Source of the DNA: Sphingomonas sp. ERG5
GTDB lineage: Bacteria; Pseudomonadota; Alphaproteobacteria; Sphingomonadales; Sphingomonadaceae
Assembly: GCF_000803065.1 (NCBI RefSeq)
Contig: NZ_JSXI01000024.1
Location: 124,001 to 188,000 of the forward strand
DNA: 64,000 bases
Direction: 5' to 3'
Positions 37,063 through 44,393 of this stretch are shown here, piece by piece. How positions within the stretch are numbered: position 1 is the stretch's first letter; every line of letters starts with the position of its first letter. The notes under the pieces were generated by a model that saw nothing but the letters and a program-made list of their open reading frames with translations, ran no database searches and was not told where the DNA came from. Both the position numbers and the translations under genes were made by a program.

Positions 37063-38586
37063 ATGAAGCTGCCTTGGCGCGCCCTGACCCTTGCCACTCT
37101 GATCCTGTTGACGGACCCGATTGCGGCAACGCCTCCCGACATGGCCGTGGTCATAACCGGTGGCGGGCGGATCCGGGGCGAGCGCCTTGCCGATCGCATA
37201 GCCTTTCGCGGCATACCCTTCGCAGCCCCACCGGTCGGCCCGCTGCGCTGGCGCCCACCGGCTCCGGTCAGATCCTGGGCGGGGGTGCGCGACGCGACGC
37301 GTTCGGCACCAGCCTGTGCGCAGCTCAGCGAAGGCTGGAACAAGGGCAATGCCGATTATAGCGCCGAGGATTGCCTGTATCTGGAAATCGCCACGCCCAG
37401 CCTGACGCCAGCGCGGCGCTTGCCGGTGCTGGTATGGATCCATGGCGGTTCGAACACGGCCGGTGGCGGCGCGGGCACGATCGCCTCGTCGATGGTTCGG
37501 CGCGGCATTGTGCTGGTATCGATCCAGTATCGGCTGGGCGCGCTCGGCTTCATGGCGCATCCCGCGCTGACCGCGGAATCGCCACACCATGCCTCGGGCA
37601 ATTACGGGCTGATGGACCAGCAGGCGGCACTTGTTTGGGTCCAGCGCAACATCGCCCGCTTCGGCGGCGACCCGACCCGGGTCACGCTCGGCGGCCAGTC
37701 CGCGGGCGCGATGGATGTCGGGCTGCAGCAGGTCTCGCCACGTGCGCGCGGCCTGTTCCATGCCGCCATCGAGGAAAGCGGCACGGCGGGCTTCGGCTTT
37801 CCACCCCGCAACCTGCGCGCGAGCGAAGCGATCGGAGAGCGGATCATCGCACAGGCCGGCCGGCCGCATGCCAGTGCCACCGCATTGCGCGCACTCCCCG
37901 TCGCCACCTTGCTGGAGGCCATGCGCGGCATCACCCTCCCCGGCCTGCCCGAAGCCGGCAGCCCCTGGGTTCAGACCACGATCGACGGCCATGTCATTAC
38001 CGAGCCGCCGGCAGCCACGCTGGCCCGCGGCGCAGGCCAGCGCGTGCCGCTGCTGATCGGCACCAATGCGCAGGAGATCGATTTCTATCCCGATCTGGCC
38101 GCCGCCCGCCGGCGTCTGCCACACGCATTCGGCGCGAAGGCGGATGCGGCAGCGCGCTTCTATGGCCTGGAGCGGCCGGATGCCCCGCCCGCCGATCCCA
38201 TACGCGGCACGGCGCGGATGCAGATCGGCACCGATATCGTCTTCAATTGCCCGACCGGATTCGTCGCCGGGGCGCGGCGGCGGTCGGGCGTTTCGGTTTG
38301 GCGTTACGACTTCAACTATCAGCCGTCGGGCGGGCCGGCGCCGGGTCATTCGAGCGAGTTGCGCCATGTCTTCGGTAACCCCGGCGAGGATGGCATCGCC
38401 ACCGATGCGCCACCACTTCAGGCCTATTGGGCGAACTTCATTCGTAGCGGCACCCCGAACGGTGCCGGCCTGGTGCCTTGGCCGGTCTATGGTGCCGAGC
38501 AGCATTATCTCGGCTTTGGTACGGGTAAGCCAGCGGCCGCCACGGGGCTGCGCGCAGCCCTGTGCGCGAACTGGTCGCCACCCTGA
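37063..38586 (+). CDS. exported type-B carboxylesterase
   Basis: A 507-residue protein with a signal peptide (about 1-22). The carboxylesterase motifs are EDCLYL (102-107), HGGS (127-130), the nucleophile GGQSAGAM (Ser213), a Glu in TNAQEIDF and a His in PGHSSELRHVFG. It hydrolyses carboxylic esters in the periplasm or outside the cell. It converges with the TonB receptor gene, whose stop is directly adjacent at 38587; the shared exported location suggests ester uptake and cleavage. Confidence 0.9.
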   Translation: MKLPWRALTLATLILLTDPIAATPPDMAVVITGGGRIRGERLADRIAFRGIPFAAPPVGPLRWRPPAPVRSWAGVRDATRSAPACAQLSEGWNKGNADYSAEDCLYLEIATPSLTPARRLPVLVWIHGGSNTAGGGAGTIASSMVRRGIVLVSIQYRLGALGFMAHPALTAESPHHASGNYGLMDQQAALVWVQRNIARFGGDPTRVTLGGQSAGAMDVGLQQVSPRARGLFHAAIEESGTAGFGFPPRNLRASEAIGERIIAQAGRPHASATALRALPVATLLEAMRGITLPGLPEAGSPWVQTTIDGHVITEPPAATLARGAGQRVPLLIGTNAQEIDFYPDLAAARRRLPHAFGAKADAAARFYGLERPDAPPADPIRGTARMQIGTDIVFNCPTGFVAGARRRSGVSVWRYDFNYQPSGGPAPGHSSELRHVFGNPGEDGIATDAPPLQAYWANFIRSGTPNGAGLVPWPVYGAEQHYLGFGTGKPAAATGLRAALCANWSPP

Positions 38587-40662
38587 TCAGTTCAGGCGGA
38601 TACCGATCCAGAAGGTCTGCGGCGTGCCATAGTCCATCGATCCCCCGGCATTTCGGGTGACCACGGTCTCGTCGAACAGATTCTCCACCCGGCCGATGAT
38701 CGAAACATGCTTCATGATCGGCACACGCGCGGTCGCGTCGACGGTCAGCGCGCCGCGCAGCACATCGGTTTCGAGATCGTCTTCGAACTGTGCACCGACG
38801 TAACGCAACGTCGCCGACAGCGCCGGGCCGTTGATCGGCGCCCAGGCCAATGTGGCGCTCACCGAATGACGCGGGCTCTGCGCCGGGGTGAAGCCATCCA
38901 GCCTGGCCGACACGCCGGATGCATGCACCGTGGAATCGCTAAAGGCGTAGGAGGCGTCGAAACGCACCGCGCCGAAGCGCATGTTCGCCGTGATCTCGAC
39001 GCCCTTGGCGACGATCGCATCGACGTTACGGCGCTGCCGCAAATTGGTACCGATGGTGACATTGGCGATCGCATCGTCGAGGCGATTGTAGAAAGCGGTG
39101 ACGCCCAGGGTGACGCCGGGCAGCGGATGAACATCGACTCCGGCCTCAAGCCCCTTGAGCTTTTCGAGACCAAGCGCGGCGTTGGCCTGGGTAGTGATCG
39201 GTACCACGACAAAGGGCCGATACAGCTCATTGAGCGTCGGCAGGCGAAAACCGGTATAGCCCGCCGCGCGAAACGCCACGGCTTCACTCGCATTGAACAG
39301 CACGCCAACCCGTCCGGTGCCCACCAACCCGTCACGGTCCGCATAGTCGCTGCTGTTCGCGGTCAGCAGGCGGGCCGGATTGCGTTCGTGGAAAAAACCG
39401 TCGCTGATCGTCCAACGATCGCCGCGCACACCGCCGGTCAGGATCAGCTTGCCGATCGTCCAATCGTCCTCAATGAATACGCCAGTCGCACTGGTCTTGC
39501 CGCCAGCGTTGCGGCGGAAGGTCAACGCACCCGTGCCGCCATTATAGGCATCCTCGAACAATTCACCCTCGGCCAACCGCGCATCGACCCCAATGCGCAG
39601 CACATGATCGGGACCGACCGGCGGACGAATCTCGATCTTGCCGCCAAGCCCGGTCGATGGCGTGTTGCGTTGATCGAGCGTCAGGCGGAAACTGGTCGCG
39701 CTGATCACCCTGTTGGAGAAGTTGCGCGCCTGGACATAGGCGAGCACATCGATCTGCCAGTCGCCGCGATGGACCAGGCGAATGCTTGCGTCCTGGCCTT
39801 CCGACGCGCTGTCAGCACCGACAAAACGCAACGTACGGTTGTCGCCGAACAATGCGCCGCGAAATTGCAGGTCGGTCTCGGCATCGAGCGGCGCGACCGC
39901 GCGCAAGCCCGCCGACCAGTCCCGATACCGCGCCCGCGCCGTCGCCGGCACGCGTTGCGACGGGGGCGTGGTGAAAAAGCCATCGCCGCGCTCGAATTTG
40001 CCCGACAACGTCGCGAAGCCGCCGCCATCACCCAGATCGGGCGAAACCGCTCCCGACACGCTCACCGCATTGTTGGTTCCGTAGAACCCTTCGCCCGAGA
40101 CGATCGGCAAATCGCTGCGCCCCGCACTGACCAGCTCGACCGTTCCTGCGACGGCGCCCGAACCGAACGGCCCCGATCCACCGCCGCGCGTGATGCGCGC
40201 CGCGCCGAGCCGGTCGCCGGCCAACGCGGTGAAAGGGATATAGCCGAAGAACGGATCGGCGATCGGTACACCATCGAGCAGCACCAGAGTCCGGCTCGAA
40301 GCGTTGCCGCCAAGCGAGCGCAAGGTGATCCCCTGTGCCGACGGATTGGCCGACCGGCTGTCCGAGCGGCGGAATTGCTGGAAGCCGGCGACGTCCTTCA
40401 GAACATTTTCGACTCGACCCGACGCTTCGTCGGTCAACCGGGCCCGGTCGATCACGATCGAACCATAAGCCGGCGTGCCCGGCGGTAATGGCAGCCCGGT
40501 GCCGATCACCACGATATCCTCCGCGTCTTCAGAAGACGCGGAGGATCCTTGCTGCGCAAGCACAGGCAAAGGCAGCATCAGGGCGATGAGCGGCAGGCAG
40601 AACAAGCGGGATATGGCGACACAACTCCATCGATATGGACATGCGGCGGACCCGCCGGGCAA
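38587..40662 (-). CDS. BtuB-like TonB-dependent outer-membrane receptor
   Basis: A 691-residue receptor: signal peptide (core LFCLPLIALMLPLPVLA), TonB-box-like AEDIVVIGTG, plug with TLVLLDGVPIADPFFGYIPF and a barrel ending TPQTFWIGIRLN. The short plug and total length are BtuB-like, so cobalamin or another chelate is possible, but no cobalamin riboswitch was recognised upstream. The start is uncertain: the frame opens at a TTG (40662) and no ATG precedes the signal peptide in frame. Confidence 0.88.
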   Translation of the reverse strand: MPGGSAACPYRWSCVAISRLFCLPLIALMLPLPVLAQQGSSASSEDAEDIVVIGTGLPLPPGTPAYGSIVIDRARLTDEASGRVENVLKDVAGFQQFRRSDSRSANPSAQGITLRSLGGNASSRTLVLLDGVPIADPFFGYIPFTALAGDRLGAARITRGGGSGPFGSGAVAGTVELVSAGRSDLPIVSGEGFYGTNNAVSVSGAVSPDLGDGGGFATLSGKFERGDGFFTTPPSQRVPATARARYRDWSAGLRAVAPLDAETDLQFRGALFGDNRTLRFVGADSASEGQDASIRLVHRGDWQIDVLAYVQARNFSNRVISATSFRLTLDQRNTPSTGLGGKIEIRPPVGPDHVLRIGVDARLAEGELFEDAYNGGTGALTFRRNAGGKTSATGVFIEDDWTIGKLILTGGVRGDRWTISDGFFHERNPARLLTANSSDYADRDGLVGTGRVGVLFNASEAVAFRAAGYTGFRLPTLNELYRPFVVVPITTQANAALGLEKLKGLEAGVDVHPLPGVTLGVTAFYNRLDDAIANVTIGTNLRQRRNVDAIVAKGVEITANMRFGAVRFDASYAFSDSTVHASGVSARLDGFTPAQSPRHSVSATLAWAPINGPALSATLRYVGAQFEDDLETDVLRGALTVDATARVPIMKHVSIIGRVENLFDETVVTRNAGGSMDYGTPQTFWIGIRLN

Positions 40663-40725
40663 TCATTAGTCAATAATTTCAAGCACGCTCCACAAAACCG
40701 GCCAATTCCCACCGCGGGAGTAGAC

Positions 40726-40865
40726 GATTGCAGAAAACGCAATCAAGCACGCATCTTTCGCACTTGCGATCATTCACGCTGCAGTGCACAAAGATCGGGC
40801 CTTTCAGGCATCCTCTCCTAAAAACTTTCAAGGCCGGTCCCTTTCGGGGGCTGGCCCTTTTTTTT
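40726..40865 (+). ncRNA. candidate small RNA with CU-rich anti-Shine-Dalgarno segment
   Basis: In a 360-bp gap with no gene on the plus strand there is a strong plus-strand terminator. Upstream of it are a hairpin GATTGC/GCAATC (40726-40744), a small GCCT/AGGC hairpin (40799-40809) and an unpaired ATCCTCTCCT (40810-40819) complementary to ribosome-binding sites. This layout is like alphaproteobacterial trans-acting sRNAs. The 5' end and promoter are not determined. The terminator might instead serve tetR on the other strand. Confidence 0.4.
40832..40865 (+). terminator. rho-independent terminator in the receptor/tetR gap
   Basis: A 10-bp stem GGCCGGTCCC/GGGGCTGGCC (two wobble pairs) with a 5-nt loop is followed by C and eight T. 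No plus-strand protein gene precedes it. On the minus strand the same stem is followed by a weaker T-run, so it could also end the tetR transcript. Confidence 0.85.
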
Positions 40866-41022
40866 GCCCGCGCTTTACGCTACGAGCGACTCGCTGTCGT
40901 CACGCCGAACAATAAAAATGTTCGAGGAGTGGAGCCTGCCGGGGAGACCGGCAACGGCGCGATTGCAGTGTGGGGGATCGAGCTGCCCAGGGCGCTCTCC
41001 CCCGTTTCTTTCTCCGCTATCC

Positions 41023-41640
41023 TCAGGAACTGACCAGCAGCTTCGCTTCGGCGCCCGCGATAAGCAGGTCAAGGCCAGCTTCGAACAGCTCCTCGTGACC
41101 GCCATCGCGATAAGCCGCGATCGCTATCGAGAGCAGCGGATGACCTTTCACTGCCCGATCGAGCGAGTCCTTGTCGGGCGGGCTGGCGAGTTCGGCCTGC
41201 TGCTCCATCACACAGCCGACGATATAGCGGCCGATCGCGATCTGGAGCTTGAGCGCACTTTCCACCTTCATGCCCGCCGCAACGAGAAAGGTGAGTTGCG
41301 CCTCGAAATGATCGACATCCTCGGGGTCGCCCTCGGTGCCGGCATGGACCCGGGCGGCGTCACGGTACGCAAGCAGTGCAGAACGGAAGCTGTGCGCATT
41401 GCGGCGGATGAACGTCTGCCATGGTTCGCCCGAACGGGGTGTCCGGTCACGATGCCCGCGCGTGAGGATCTCGCCGTTCATCGCGTCGAGCAACATGCGC
41501 TTGTTCTTGAAATGCCAATAAAGCGCCGGCTGCTGTACGCCGAGGCGATCCGCGATCAGGCGCGTGGTCAGGCGGTCGATCCCGACATCGTTGAGCACGT
41601 CGAGCGCGGTGGCGACAATTTGTTGGCGGTCGATCTTCAT
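41023..41640 (-). CDS. TetR family repressor with tetracycline-repressor-like C-terminal domain
   Basis: A 205-residue protein with an N-terminal helix-turn-helix (about 5-50; IADRLGVQQPALYWHFKNKRMLLDAM matches the TetR class proper) and a C-terminal domain (about 70-200) like that of the Tn10-type TetR. It is divergent from an efflux MFS gene, and the 95-bp gap holds two 13-bp operator-like palindromes. It most likely represses both genes until an inducer, perhaps a tetracycline-like compound, binds. Confidence 0.92.
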   Translation of the reverse strand: MKIDRQQIVATALDVLNDVGIDRLTTRLIADRLGVQQPALYWHFKNKRMLLDAMNGEILTRGHRDRTPRSGEPWQTFIRRNAHSFRSALLAYRDAARVHAGTEGDPEDVDHFEAQLTFLVAAGMKVESALKLQIAIGRYIVGCVMEQQAELASPPDKDSLDRAVKGHPLLSIAIAAYRDGGHEELFEAGLDLLIAGAEAKLLVSS

Positions 41641-41694
41641 GCGGCTCCGGTCTTGGACGTGACTCCCGGGCTTGACTAGCAGGGCGCCCGAACC

Positions 41695-41725
41695 TTATCG
41701 CCGATAAATAGCTTATCAGTGATAA
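41695..41725. promoter_or_regulatory. two TetR-type operators
   Basis: TTATC-GCC-GATAA (41695-41707) and TTATC-AGT-GATAA (41713-41725) share identical 5-bp arms and 3-nt centres, with centres 18 bp apart. The second extends to a nearly perfect CTTATCAGTGATAAAG. Both resemble the TATCANTGATA core of known tet operators and lie between the divergent tetR and MFS genes. Confidence 0.75.
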
Positions 41726-41735
41726 AGAATCGCTC

Positions 41736-42932
41736 ATGACCAAATCTCTTGCCGTCATCCTATCGATCGTGATTCTCGATGCCATGGGCATTGGCCTGGT
41801 CATGCCGATCCTGCCCGCCATGCTCCGCGCGCTGTTGCATAGCGATGATCTCGGCTGGCGGTTCGGCGCTTTCCTGTCGCTCTATGCGCTACTCCAGCTC
41901 CTCTGTGCGCCGATCCTCGGCAGCCTGAGCGACCGTTTCGGCCGTCGGCCGGTTCTGCTCATCTCGATGGCCGGGGCCGTGATCGATTACATCTTCATGA
42001 CCCTTGCCCCGTCTTTCTGGTGGCTGTTTCTCGGCCGGGCGATTGCCGGGGTTACCGCAGCGAATGGATCAATGGCGGCGGCTTATCTGACTGATATCGT
42101 GCCGGAGGATCGACGCGCCCGGGCGTTCGGCTATCTCAGCGCCTGTTTCGGGCTCGGCTTCATCATCGGACCGGCGCTGGGCGGTGTGCTCGGCGCCTAT
42201 TGGCTGCGCGCGCCCTTTGTCGCCGCCGCGCTGCTCAATGCGCTCAACCTGCTCGTCACACTGTTCGTGCTGCCCGAATCGCACACAGCGCGAACCGGGA
42301 AGCTCGACCGCCAGGCGTTCCATCCCTTTGCACCGATGCGCTGGGCGGCGAGCTTCCCGGCCCTGCTCCCACTGCTTGCCATGTTCATCATCCTCGCACT
42401 CGTCGGTGAAGTCGGTGGCACCGTCTGGGTGCTTTATGGCCAGGATAAATTCGCCTGGGACAGCATCATGGTCGGGCTCTCGCTCGCCGGCTTCGGCCTG
42501 TTCCATGCGCTTGCGCAAGCATTGGTGGCGGGACCGGTCAGCGAACGCTGGGGCGAACAGCGCGCGGTGATCATCGGCATCGTCGCCGACACGATTGCCT
42601 ATTTCGCCATCGCCTTCACGACCAGGGGTTGGTTTGCTTTCCTGCTCTTCCCGCTGTTCTGCATCGGCGGAATCGGCGCGCCGGCACTGCAGTCCCTGCT
42701 GTCGAAGCAAGTCGACGACGCCGATCAGGGACGGCTGCAGGGTGTGCTGACCAGCATGAGCAGCCTAGTGTCGATCGTCGGCCCGCTGATCATCAGCGAG
42801 GGCTATTTCGCCTCACGCGGGTTCTTTCCGGGGCTGGTCTGGGTCGCAGGCGCGATGCTGTACCTGCTTTGCCTGCCGATCCTGTTCAGGCGCACGCCGG
42901 GAATGAAGGTCGACGCGGCGACAAATGCCTAG
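41736..42932 (+). CDS. TetA-like MFS efflux transporter
   Basis: A 398-residue, 12-helix drug:H+ antiporter of the TetA/DHA1 group. It starts with SLAVILSIVILDAMGIGLVMPILP, and carries the loop-2/3 motif GSLSDRFGRRPVLL and the antiporter motif C-like GLGFIIGPALGG. With the divergent tetR and paired operators it has the layout of a tetracycline-efflux module, but as a chromosomal sphingomonad gene it may export another compound. Its start is 10 bp after operator 2, so bound repressor would block its leader. Confidence 0.88.
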   Translation: MTKSLAVILSIVILDAMGIGLVMPILPAMLRALLHSDDLGWRFGAFLSLYALLQLLCAPILGSLSDRFGRRPVLLISMAGAVIDYIFMTLAPSFWWLFLGRAIAGVTAANGSMAAAYLTDIVPEDRRARAFGYLSACFGLGFIIGPALGGVLGAYWLRAPFVAAALLNALNLLVTLFVLPESHTARTGKLDRQAFHPFAPMRWAASFPALLPLLAMFIILALVGEVGGTVWVLYGQDKFAWDSIMVGLSLAGFGLFHALAQALVAGPVSERWGEQRAVIIGIVADTIAYFAIAFTTRGWFAFLLFPLFCIGGIGAPALQSLLSKQVDDADQGRLQGVLTSMSSLVSIVGPLIISEGYFASRGFFPGLVWVAGAMLYLLCLPILFRRTPGMKVDAATNA

Positions 42933-42956
42933 CTGCTCCCTTCATGCTCGCTCCCC

Positions 42957-44393
42957 TTATGCGATGTGCACCGCTTTGGTGATCATATGCGCGGCGATGC
43001 CTTCAGGGCCGTCCTCCGACCCATAACCGCTTTCCTTCATCCCGCCGAACGGGCTGTCGGGCCAGGTCAACCGCACGCTGTTGATCGCGACCATTCCGGC
43101 CTCGATCGCATCACCGAGGAGATTCTGCCGCCGGCCATTCTCGGTGAAACAATAAGCGGCAAGGCCGAACGGCAGGCGATTGGCCTGTTCGATCGCCTCC
43201 TCGACGGTGACGAACGGGGCAATCAGCGCGATCGGGCCGAACGGCTCCTCATTCATCGCCCGCGCGGTCAGCGGCACATCGGCGATGACGGTCGGATTGT
43301 AGAAGAAACCCGCCCCGTCAGCCCGGTCGCCACCGGCCAGCACGCGCGCGCCGATGCTGCGCGCATCCTCGACCATCGCTGCGATCGCATCGGGGCGACG
43401 CGGATTGGCCATCGGGCCCATCTGCGTGCCGGCGTCCAGGCCGTCGCCGACCTTCAGTCGCTTGGTGCGCTCGGCAAAGCCGCTGGCGAAACGATCGTAA
43501 ATGCCCTGCTGCACATAGAAGCGCGTCGGCGACACACACACCTGCCCCGCATTGCGGAACTTGTGCGCGACCAATGTGTCGAGCGTCTTGTCCAGATCGC
43601 AATCGTCGAACACCAGCACCGGCCCGTGCCCGCCCAGTTCCATCGTCGTCTTCATCACCGTATCGGCGGCGAGCTTGAGCAAATGCTTGCCGACCGGCAC
43701 CGATCCGGTGAAGCTCAATTTCCGCGTGATCGGCGAAGTCAGCAGCTGGCGCGAGATCAGATCCGGCACGCCGAACACGCATTGCGCGACATCGCCGGGC
43801 AGCCCGGCATCCTGAAAACAGCGCACCGTTTCGACCGCGCTGCCCGGCGTTTCCTCGCTGGGCTTGAGAATGATCGAGCAGCCCGCGGCGAGCGCGGGCG
43901 CGATCTTGCGTACCACATTCAGGATTGGAAAATTCCACGCGCAGAATGCGGCGACCGGTCCAACCGGCTGCTGCAGCACCAGCGAGCGGGTGCCCGACGG
44001 ACGCGGCAGGACGCGACCATAGATGCGCACCGCTTCCCCGGCATGGAAGTCGAGCATTGCGGCGGCGGCCAGCGCCTCGCCGCGCGCTTCGGCAAAGGGC
44101 TTGCCCTGTTCGAGCGTCGCCAGCCGGGCGAGCCGATCGGCCCGCTCGCGAATCAGCGCGGCAGTCCTGACCAATACTGCAGCCCGCGCTTCAGGTGCGG
44201 TGGCGCGCCAGGCGAGAAAGCCGCGCTGCGCTACCTCCAGCGCGCGATCCAGATCGTCGGCGGTCGCCAATGGCAGCGCCGCCAGCACCGCGCCGGTTGC
44301 CGGGTTGAGTACATCCTGCGTATCCCGCCCCACGCTATCGAGCCATTCCCCGCCGATATACAGGCCAAGGCGGGGATCATAATCGTGCGTCAT
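42957..44393 (-). CDS. NAD(P)+-dependent aldehyde dehydrogenase (succinate-semialdehyde dehydrogenase-like)
   Basis: A 478-residue ALDH. Family motifs are CAWNFPILNVVRKIAPALAAGC, the general base Glu in MELGGHGPV, the nucleophile Cys in NAGQVCVSPTR and a C-terminal SPFGGMKESGYGSEDG. It resembles the succinate-semialdehyde / alpha-ketoglutarate-semialdehyde dehydrogenase branch; the exact substrate is not provable. The start at 44393 gives MTHDYDPRLGLYIGGEW and has GAGAGG upstream. It converges on the MFS gene. Confidence 0.9.
   Translation of the reverse strand: MTHDYDPRLGLYIGGEWLDSVGRDTQDVLNPATGAVLAALPLATADDLDRALEVAQRGFLAWRATAPEARAAVLVRTAALIRERADRLARLATLEQGKPFAEARGEALAAAAMLDFHAGEAVRIYGRVLPRPSGTRSLVLQQPVGPVAAFCAWNFPILNVVRKIAPALAAGCSIILKPSEETPGSAVETVRCFQDAGLPGDVAQCVFGVPDLISRQLLTSPITRKLSFTGSVPVGKHLLKLAADTVMKTTMELGGHGPVLVFDDCDLDKTLDTLVAHKFRNAGQVCVSPTRFYVQQGIYDRFASGFAERTKRLKVGDGLDAGTQMGPMANPRRPDAIAAMVEDARSIGARVLAGGDRADGAGFFYNPTVIADVPLTARAMNEEPFGPIALIAPFVTVEEAIEQANRLPFGLAAYCFTENGRRQNLLGDAIEAGMVAINSVRLTWPDSPFGGMKESGYGSEDGPEGIAAHMITKAVHIA

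What the first reader, a model, noticed from the sequence alone, without database searches (positions are those of the whole stretch)
40726..40865. Orphan plus-strand terminator with CU-rich upstream segment: candidate small RNA
A 10-bp stem plus T8 terminator has no protein gene before it on its strand. Upstream are two hairpins and an exposed ATCCTCTCCT, complementary to ribosome-binding sites, the design of trans-acting alphaproteobacterial sRNAs. It sits upstream of a TonB receptor and downstream of tetR.
Basis: partly seen in the sequence, partly recalled or inferred. Interest (0 to 1): 0.5.

Follow-up and report, generated by a model that had tools for sequence, protein, structure and literature searches.

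The report
Sphingomonad SuhB-type small regulatory RNA
The stretch is very probably a gene for a short regulatory RNA of a known alphaproteobacterial family, in a variant form found across sphingomonads, and its conserved promoter suggests that it is switched by a LysR-type regulator and by the cell's carbon-storage sensor.

Summary
Window 40792-40871 (+) matches Rfam RF00519 (suhB/mmgR) at 47.3 bits, gathering score 41. The own genome has four matches, three over the cut-off.
The span 40726-40865 is not all RNA. 40726-40744 is a conserved promoter inverted repeat. The RNA probably runs from about 40798 to 40865: a 4-bp hairpin, the CU-rich AUCCUCUCCU, and an 11-bp terminator.
It belongs to a sphingomonad variant ("type A") with a changed core, distinct from the canonical copy beside N-formylglutamate amidohydrolase. 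Type-A copies share a promoter: TTGC-N7-GCA near -64 (74 of 101 copies) and often a PhaR-type dyad over the presumed -10 (41 of 101, window copy included). In the own genus a GcvA-like LysR gene lies divergent from a family member in 36 of 36 cases.
Proposed mechanism: LysR activation, PhaR repression relieved by PHB granules, Hfq-assisted blocking of ribosome-binding sites. Transcription, regulators and targets are inferred; a TonB-receptor target test was negative. Novelty lies in the variant and its promoter, not in the sRNA's existence.

The parts
40726..40744 (+). Inverted repeat GATTGCAGAAAACGCAATC (TTGC-N7-GCAA; LysR-type T-N11-A form), centre about -64 from the presumed start: putative activator box
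   Evidence: TTGC-N7-GCA at -90..-70 from the anchor (40806 in the window) in 74 of 101 type-A copies, against 9 copies in the 200 nt from -300 to -100; coordinates printed. That T-N11-A is a LysR-type form is recalled
40755..40769 (+). Conserved element CTTTCGCACTTGCGA including the presumed -35 hexamer TTGCGA (40764-40769)
   Evidence: Most conserved ten-base block upstream of the RNA (1.07 bits per base); GCACTTGC in 77 of 101 copies at -56..-36; in the own genome this element (up to 2 mismatches) has a box upstream at 3 of 11 places, the three type-A sRNA genes
40780..40788 (+). TGCAGTGCA, PhaR-type dyad (YGCRNYGCR) overlapping the presumed -10
   Evidence: Same offset in 31 of 50 genus type-A copies, 0 of 14 other copies (one of these re-read in the right orientation), about 0.04 expected per copy; motif from S. 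meliloti PhaR (PMC12542648, passages)
40787..40792 (+). Presumed -10 hexamer CACAAA (weak), 17 nt after TTGCGA
   Evidence: Inferred from spacing; not found by the sigma-70 scan
40798..40865 (+). Small RNA of the RF00519 (suhB/mmgR, alpha-r8) family, sphingomonad type-A variant; start inferred, end from the terminator
   Evidence: RF00519 match 40792-40871, 47.3 bits, gathering score 41, E 9e-9 in a 451-base search
40799..40809 (+). 5' hairpin GCCUUUCAGGC (4 pairs, 3-base loop), invariant in sequence
   Evidence: Invariant in 41 of 41 aligned copies, so no covariation
40810..40819 (+). Unpaired CU-rich seed AUCCUCUCCU (anti-Shine-Dalgarno)
   Evidence: First nine bases invariant in 41 of 41, the tenth in at least 90%; unpaired in the fold
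40832..40865 (+). Rho-independent terminator, 11-bp stem and T8

Best explanation
The locus is a small RNA gene of the Rfam RF00519 (suhB/mmgR, alpha-r8) family, in a sphingomonad-specific variant, one of three sibling copies in this genome plus one canonical copy. An RNA of about 68 nt starts near 40798 and ends at the terminator at 40865. It most likely binds Hfq through its 3' end and uses the exposed AUCCUCUCCU to cover Shine-Dalgarno sequences of target mRNAs, lowering their translation while good carbon is plentiful. Its weak core promoter is probably switched on by a LysR-type regulator bound at 40726-40744 and held down by PhaR at 40780-40788; PHB granules would sequester PhaR and release the RNA. 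Shown here: family membership by model score, predicted fold, conservation, the shared promoter elements, and linkage of a sibling copy to a LysR gene. Inferred: transcription, start site, Hfq, identity of both regulators, targets.
For: RF00519 match over the gathering score; 59 of 61 genomes searched have a match. In 41 aligned type-A copies 20 consecutive core bases are invariant, while 37 of 41 keep a hairpin plus T-run with 29 distinct stems. Promoter elements stand at nearly fixed places. A GcvA-like LysR gene lies divergent from an RF00519 hit, 43-169 nt away, in 36 of 36 cases in the genus; the 25 of these hits that I read are all type A. In a draw of 298 family genomes, type A and the LysR gene occur together (232 both, 45 neither, 7 type A only, 14 LysR only; hand tally, noted). 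The own genome has PhaR (153.8 bits, cut-off 109.45) and two phasins, and one phasin gene has two dyads just upstream of its likely start. Published: Sphingopyxis SuhB is a 61-nt Hfq-dependent repressor of thnR, raised by fast growth and PHB granules (PMC6563040, passages); Caulobacter SisA-D act through a similar CU core (PMC12559287, sections 7, 9, first part of 12); S. meliloti PhaR binds the mmgR promoter (PMC12542648, passages).
Against: No transcript data. No sigma-70 consensus was found; the assumed hexamers match 4 and 3 of 6 bases. G152 has two boxed type-A copies and no LysR relative at E 1e-25 (94% complete). In nine genomes noted by eye (both listings are capped) the LysR gene is not next to a listed type-A copy, and in 6 of 6 fetched LysR upstream regions of such genomes no box was found, although 5 of 7 of their sRNA copies keep one. 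Two of the three own type-A copies lack the PhaR dyad, as do 60 of 101 copies overall. TonB receptors as targets: no significant excess of pairing (31 against 38 genes, p = 0.13; 71 of 200 shuffled seeds did as well). The alpha-r8 10-mer UUUCCUCCCU is not exactly present. Co-occurrence within one family is not corrected for shared descent.
Confidence: 0.8

Rival explanations
1. An antisense or cis-acting RNA for the neighbouring TonB receptor: if that mRNA has a long leader reaching past 40865, the plus-strand RNA would pair with it along its whole length.
For: The receptor is the divergent neighbour here and in the closest relative G033 (80.6% identity).
Against: The RNA is a dispersed multi-copy family: the receptor was found beside 1 of 20 unlinked copies. 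The conserved core is shared by the copies, not tuned to this neighbour. The best duplex of the seed with the receptor's guessed start region was only -7.8 kcal/mol.
Confidence: 0.05
2. A silent or decaying paralogue: sequence similarity to the family remains but the gene is not transcribed.
For: The core promoter is weak; sibling copies have the same core and may be redundant.
Against: Box, -35 block, dyad, core and terminator are all present here at the usual spacing; the G033 copy beside the same receptor keeps them too.
Confidence: 0.1
3. Only a transcription terminator, for tetR on the minus strand or for read-through on the plus strand.
For: It lies beyond the 3' end of tetR.
Against: The T-run directly follows the stem on the plus strand only; RF00519 match over the gathering score; strong conservation upstream of the stem.
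Confidence: 0.03
4. A short protein-coding mRNA.
For: A 101-aa TTG-start open frame overlaps (40728-41033).
Against: Copies differ by single-base indels inside the conserved stretch (CTAAAAC against CTAAAAAC), which a reading frame would not tolerate; the terminator lies inside that frame.
Confidence: 0.02

Closest known systems
SuhB sRNA of Sphingopyxis granuli TFA
   Same: Same Rfam name and a related sphingomonad; [quoted passage not shown] higher at fast growth and with PHB granules (PMC6563040, passages)
SisA-D (alphaR8) of Caulobacter crescentus
   Same: Multi-copy siblings, weak 5' hairpin, unpaired CU core, Rho-independent terminator; SisA represses mRNAs incl. TonB receptors (PMC12559287, sections 7, 9, first part of 12, and passages)
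   Different: Core UUUCCUCCCU there, AUCCUCUCCU here. That paper reports no shared promoter motif among SisA-D, whereas the type-A siblings share one. No candidate sponge like CrfA was found here by the one pattern tried
MmgR of Sinorhizobium meliloti (RF00519 / alpha-r8)
   Same: Same Rfam family; promoter bound by PhaR (AniA), with a YGCRNYGCR-type site (PMC12542648, passages)
   Different: Sole member in S. meliloti (PMC12559287, section 12); the box and the LysR gene were not looked for there
gcvA-gcvB of E. coli; VtlR-AbcR of Rhizobiales
   Same: A LysR-type regulator controlling a trans sRNA; gcvA-gcvB also divergent (gcvA-gcvB recalled; VtlR-AbcR from PMC7486931, passages)
   Different: The RNA families differ; the LysR protein scores below the GcvA cut-off (184 of 288 bits); the VtlR box GCAT-N3-TG-N3-T differs from TTGC-N7-GCAA

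Membership tests
Rfam RF00519 (suhB/mmgR) | Covariance-model score at or above the gathering score (41 bits) | tested here: met
   47.3 bits, positions 1-77 of 77
alpha-r8 sRNA family (as described in PMC12559287, section 7) | Rho-independent terminator | tested here: met
alpha-r8 sRNA family (as described in PMC12559287, section 7) | Weak 5' hairpin followed by an unpaired CU-rich stretch | tested here: met
   (predicted fold)
alpha-r8 sRNA family (as described in PMC12559287, section 7) | Exact core 10-mer UUUCCUCCCU | tested here: not met
   Window has AUCCUCUCCU; 49 of 64 genus copies read have TCCTCTCC. The fourth own copy, L004, has ATCTCCTCCCT, closer to the canonical core. Hence filed as a variant
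alpha-r8 sRNA family (as described in PMC12559287, section 7) | Copy beside an N-formylglutamate amidohydrolase gene (said to hold for most species' single copy) | tested here: not met
   Not so for the window copy; met by the fourth own copy L004 (PF05013, 192 bits)
alpha-r8 sRNA family (as described in PMC12559287, section 7) | Hfq-dependent pairing with target RNAs | not testable with these tools
   Sequence is compatible; the target computation gave no support
PhaR regulon | YGCRNYGCR dyad in the promoter and PhaR in the genome | tested here: met
PhaR regulon | PhaR binds and represses the promoter | not testable with these tools
   needs EMSA or a phaR mutant
AbcR (alpha-r15) | Two anti-SD motifs and three stem-loops in 114-120 nt (PMC7143759, passages) | tested here: not met
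   One CU stretch and two stem-loops in about 68 nt

The most novel reading that the evidence does not exclude
Sphingomonadaceae carry a co-regulated set of sibling sRNAs that form a branch of the alpha-r8 family with its own seed. The set is driven by a dedicated GcvA-like LysR regulator encoded divergently from one sibling, through a shared box near -64. Some siblings, this one included, also carry a PhaR operator over the -10 element, so that PHB granules set the level of the RNA; this would explain the reported effects of growth rate and PHB on SuhB in Sphingopyxis.
Probability: 0.45. Interest if true: 0.6.

Novelty: new variant of a known kind. Interest (0 to 1): 0.42.

Why it matters
An sRNA of this family controls catabolite repression in Sphingopyxis granuli, but the passages that I read name no transcription factor for it there. 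A shared box, a linked LysR gene and a PhaR dyad make that question directly testable by two deletions and two gel shifts. If right, it also shows that siblings of this family can be co-regulated, unlike what is reported for Caulobacter SisA-D.

Tried and rejected
Extended target or sponge search: AGGAGAGGATGCC with one mismatch gave 15 places in the own genome (2 for the pattern read backwards). Three are the sRNA genes themselves; the other 12 lie in open frames of 114-872 aa, without a terminator within 150 nt and without a convincing start codon. Rejected as a sponge or a high-complementarity target, although the excess over the control is not explained.

TonB receptors as targets, tempting because of Caulobacter SisA and the neighbouring receptor: 30 of the 122 plug-domain matches plus the window receptor against 38 window genes gave p = 0.13, and shuffled seeds did as well in 71 of 200 cases. 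Start codons were guessed by a simple rule, so this is a weak test, but it gives no support.

Covariation of the 5' hairpin: none, it is invariant. MAFFT misaligned the terminators, so RNAalifold did not pair them; the hairpins were counted sequence by sequence instead, where four of 41 failed the strict rule.

The first fold with 18 extra upstream bases gave z = -1.2 (25 of 200 shuffles as good); with the inferred start it is -2.47. Weak Rfam matches sbrA, L20_leader and Vault are below their gathering scores.

The other block-2 matches of the own genome (8 of 11) carry no box and were dropped. In some searches one of the 14 non-type-A copies (L059) was read in the wrong orientation; re-read it has the canonical core and no dyad, so the count 0 of 14 stands.

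Literature: Garcia-Romero 2018 and a second paper tried by a recalled DOI (10.4161/rna.18643) are not held. The listings showed no title or abstract start that describes the sphingomonad promoter elements or the LysR link; this covers open-licence papers only, and most listed papers were not opened.

Full report
What is there. The plus-strand terminator at 40832-40865 is real and has the most pairs of 15 such sites in 38000-44000. Rfam places it at the end of a full-length match to RF00519 (suhB, also mmgR) at 40792-40871, 47.3 bits against a gathering score of 41, E 1.3e-6 for the whole window and 9e-9 for 451 bases. The own genome has four matches, three over the cut-off. Of 61 genomes searched (own plus 60 relatives) 59 have a match at E 0.001 and 57 one over the cut-off; the two misses are G019 and G044 (run with stricter filters).

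Anatomy. Predicted fold of 40798-40865: hairpin within 40799-40809, an open stretch that begins with AUCCUCUCCU (40810-40819), and an 11-bp terminator stem; -25.6 kcal/mol, z -2.47, 4 of 200 shuffles as good. In 41 aligned copies of the same type, the 20 consecutive bases 40799-40818 are invariant. The terminator stem is not conserved in sequence (29 distinct stems among 37 copies) but 37 of 41 still form an uninterrupted hairpin with a T-run. One-base length differences inside the conserved stretch speak against coding.

Two types. I read 64 copies: the four of the own genome and 60 fetched from same-genus hits listed (not all of them). 49 have TCCTCTCC ('type A', a label of mine); a 50th (L098) has a variant core; of the 14 others, 12 have the canonical-like TCCTCCCTGAACC and two (L066, L081) do not. 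The canonical copy of the own genome, L004, scores 34.9 bits, below the cut-off, and lies beside an N-formylglutamate amidohydrolase gene, the locus reported as typical for alpha-r8 (PMC12559287, section 7). The window copy is type A. The type-A core occurs with at most 2 mismatches in 239 of 298 genomes drawn from the family, in 79 of 96 genera.

Promoter. Upstream of the RNA, 108 distinct type-A copies from these genomes have three conserved blocks at nearly fixed spacing and almost nothing from -125 to -86 (positions from the anchor AGGCATCC, 40806 in the window). (1) TTGC-N7-GCA: 74 of 101 copies with 300 nt upstream have it at -90..-70, against 9 copies in the 200 nt from -300 to -100. 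(2) GCACTTGC: 77 of 101 at -56..-36, against 4 in the far region. (3) YGCRNYGCR: 41 of 101 at -36..-16, against 57 matches in the far 200 nt, i.e. about 6 expected in 20 nt. In the window these are 40726-40744, 40755-40769 and 40780-40788. If TTGCGA and CACAAA are -35 and -10, the start is near 40798 and block 1 is centred near -64, where LysR-type activators usually bind (recalled). The hexamers are weak and the sigma-70 scan found nothing, as for a promoter that needs an activator. In the own genome block 2 with up to two mismatches occurs 11 times (1 for the backward control); 3 of 11, the three sRNA genes, also have block 1.

LysR link. The sibling copy L001 lies divergent from a LysR-type gene (PF00126, PF03466; best NCBIfam model GcvA, 184 bits, below its cut-off of 288). 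Of 37 genomes of the genus, 36 have this gene at E below 1e-100 (in G013 split over two contigs), and for all 36 an RF00519 hit lies divergent from the match at 43-169 nt. I read 25 of these 36 hits (23, two more): all 25 are type A; the other 11 were not read. The one genome without the gene, G019 (86% complete), also has no RF00519 match. In 298 family genomes the hand tally is 232 with both, 45 with neither, 7 type A only, 14 LysR only, with E 1e-80 as the limit for the LysR gene (from; one search does not name 21 of the 41 negatives, which follow by subtraction). Of the 7, one search finds LysR fragments of 68% and 59% identity in G202 and G235; nothing at 1e-25 in G152, G194, G271 and G315; only a 31% relative in G222. 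The one G222 copy that I could read lacks the box, as expected. G152, with two boxed copies, is a true exception unless its assembly (94% complete) misses the gene. Of the 14 with LysR but no type-A pattern, one search examined 9: all 9 have an RF00519 match at E 0.001, and 6 of the 9 carry GGCATCCTCTCC with an altered 5' hairpin that the pattern missed, so the true overlap is larger than the tally. In some genera the LysR gene is not next to a listed sRNA (nine genomes noted by eye, listings capped); there 5 of 7 sRNA copies read keep the box but none was found near the LysR gene in 6 of 6 regions. So linkage is strong in the genus, and regulation by this protein is a good hypothesis but not shown. 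Shared descent is not corrected for.

PhaR link. PMC12542648 (passages) gives the S. meliloti PhaR motif with the centre YGCRNYGCR, lists under phaP2 a site that contains TGCAGTGCA, the same nine bases as in the window, and reports PhaR binding to the mmgR promoter. The dyad stands at the same offset in 10 of 23 LysR-linked and 21 of 27 unlinked type-A copies of the genus, and in 0 of 14 others, with about 0.04 expected per copy. In the own genome only the window copy among the three type-A copies has it. The genome encodes PhaR and two phasins; one phasin gene has two such dyads within 80 nt of a likely start with AAGGAGG before it, the second phasin locus shows none close to the gene. PMC6563040 (passages) reports that PHB granules and fast growth raise suhB in Sphingopyxis, which fits a PhaR repressor removed by PHB.

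Mechanism. By analogy with Caulobacter SisA (PMC12559287, sections 7, 9 and the first part of 12) and Sphingopyxis SuhB, the RNA should pair with ribosome-binding regions with help from Hfq; I did not search the genome for hfq. A test on TonB receptors gave no support, the neighbouring receptor pairs poorly (-7.8 kcal/mol), and no sponge was found by the one pattern tried. Targets stay open.

Surroundings. The nearest relative G033 has the same kind of sRNA beside an 80.6% identical TonB receptor but not tetR; among 20 neighbourhoods (about 10 kb each) of unlinked type-A copies the window receptor was found in 1 and tetR in 0. The tetR-side neighbour is thus not part of a conserved unit in these.

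Verdict. My confidence: sRNA of this family about 0.95; PhaR control about 0.6; control by the linked LysR about 0.5.

Noticed in passing
41023-42932: A divergent tetR / efflux pair: the MFS protein passes the Tet(A)/Tet(B)/Tet(C) family cut-off (496.8 of 475 bits) and the repressor is just under the TetR cut-off (253.8 of 265); tetR was found beside none of 20 related sRNA loci (one weak MFS match).
   Followed up: partly
L004 (G000:C80:19292-19372): Canonical alpha-r8 copy with a distinct upstream region (TTGAAC...CCTATAT-like hexamers and GTGTCCCCCCTTTCGCG-like stretch) seen in most of the canonical copies read in the genus but in none of the type-A copies read.
   Followed up: partly
L152 / L164 (G202:C50): Two type-A copies about 360 nt apart in tandem; the second lacks the box but keeps a TGCAGTGCA dyad. 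G095, G236, G177 and G234 also have copies 220-280 nt apart.
   Followed up: no
own genome G000: 122 matches to the TonB plug domain, a large receptor set.
   Followed up: no
window 48132: A second TTGC-N7-GCAA in the window; its context was not examined.
   Followed up: no
G222, G271 (genus g116): Genomes with type-A-like cores but no close relative of the LysR gene; the copy read in G222 has block 2 but no box.
   Followed up: partly
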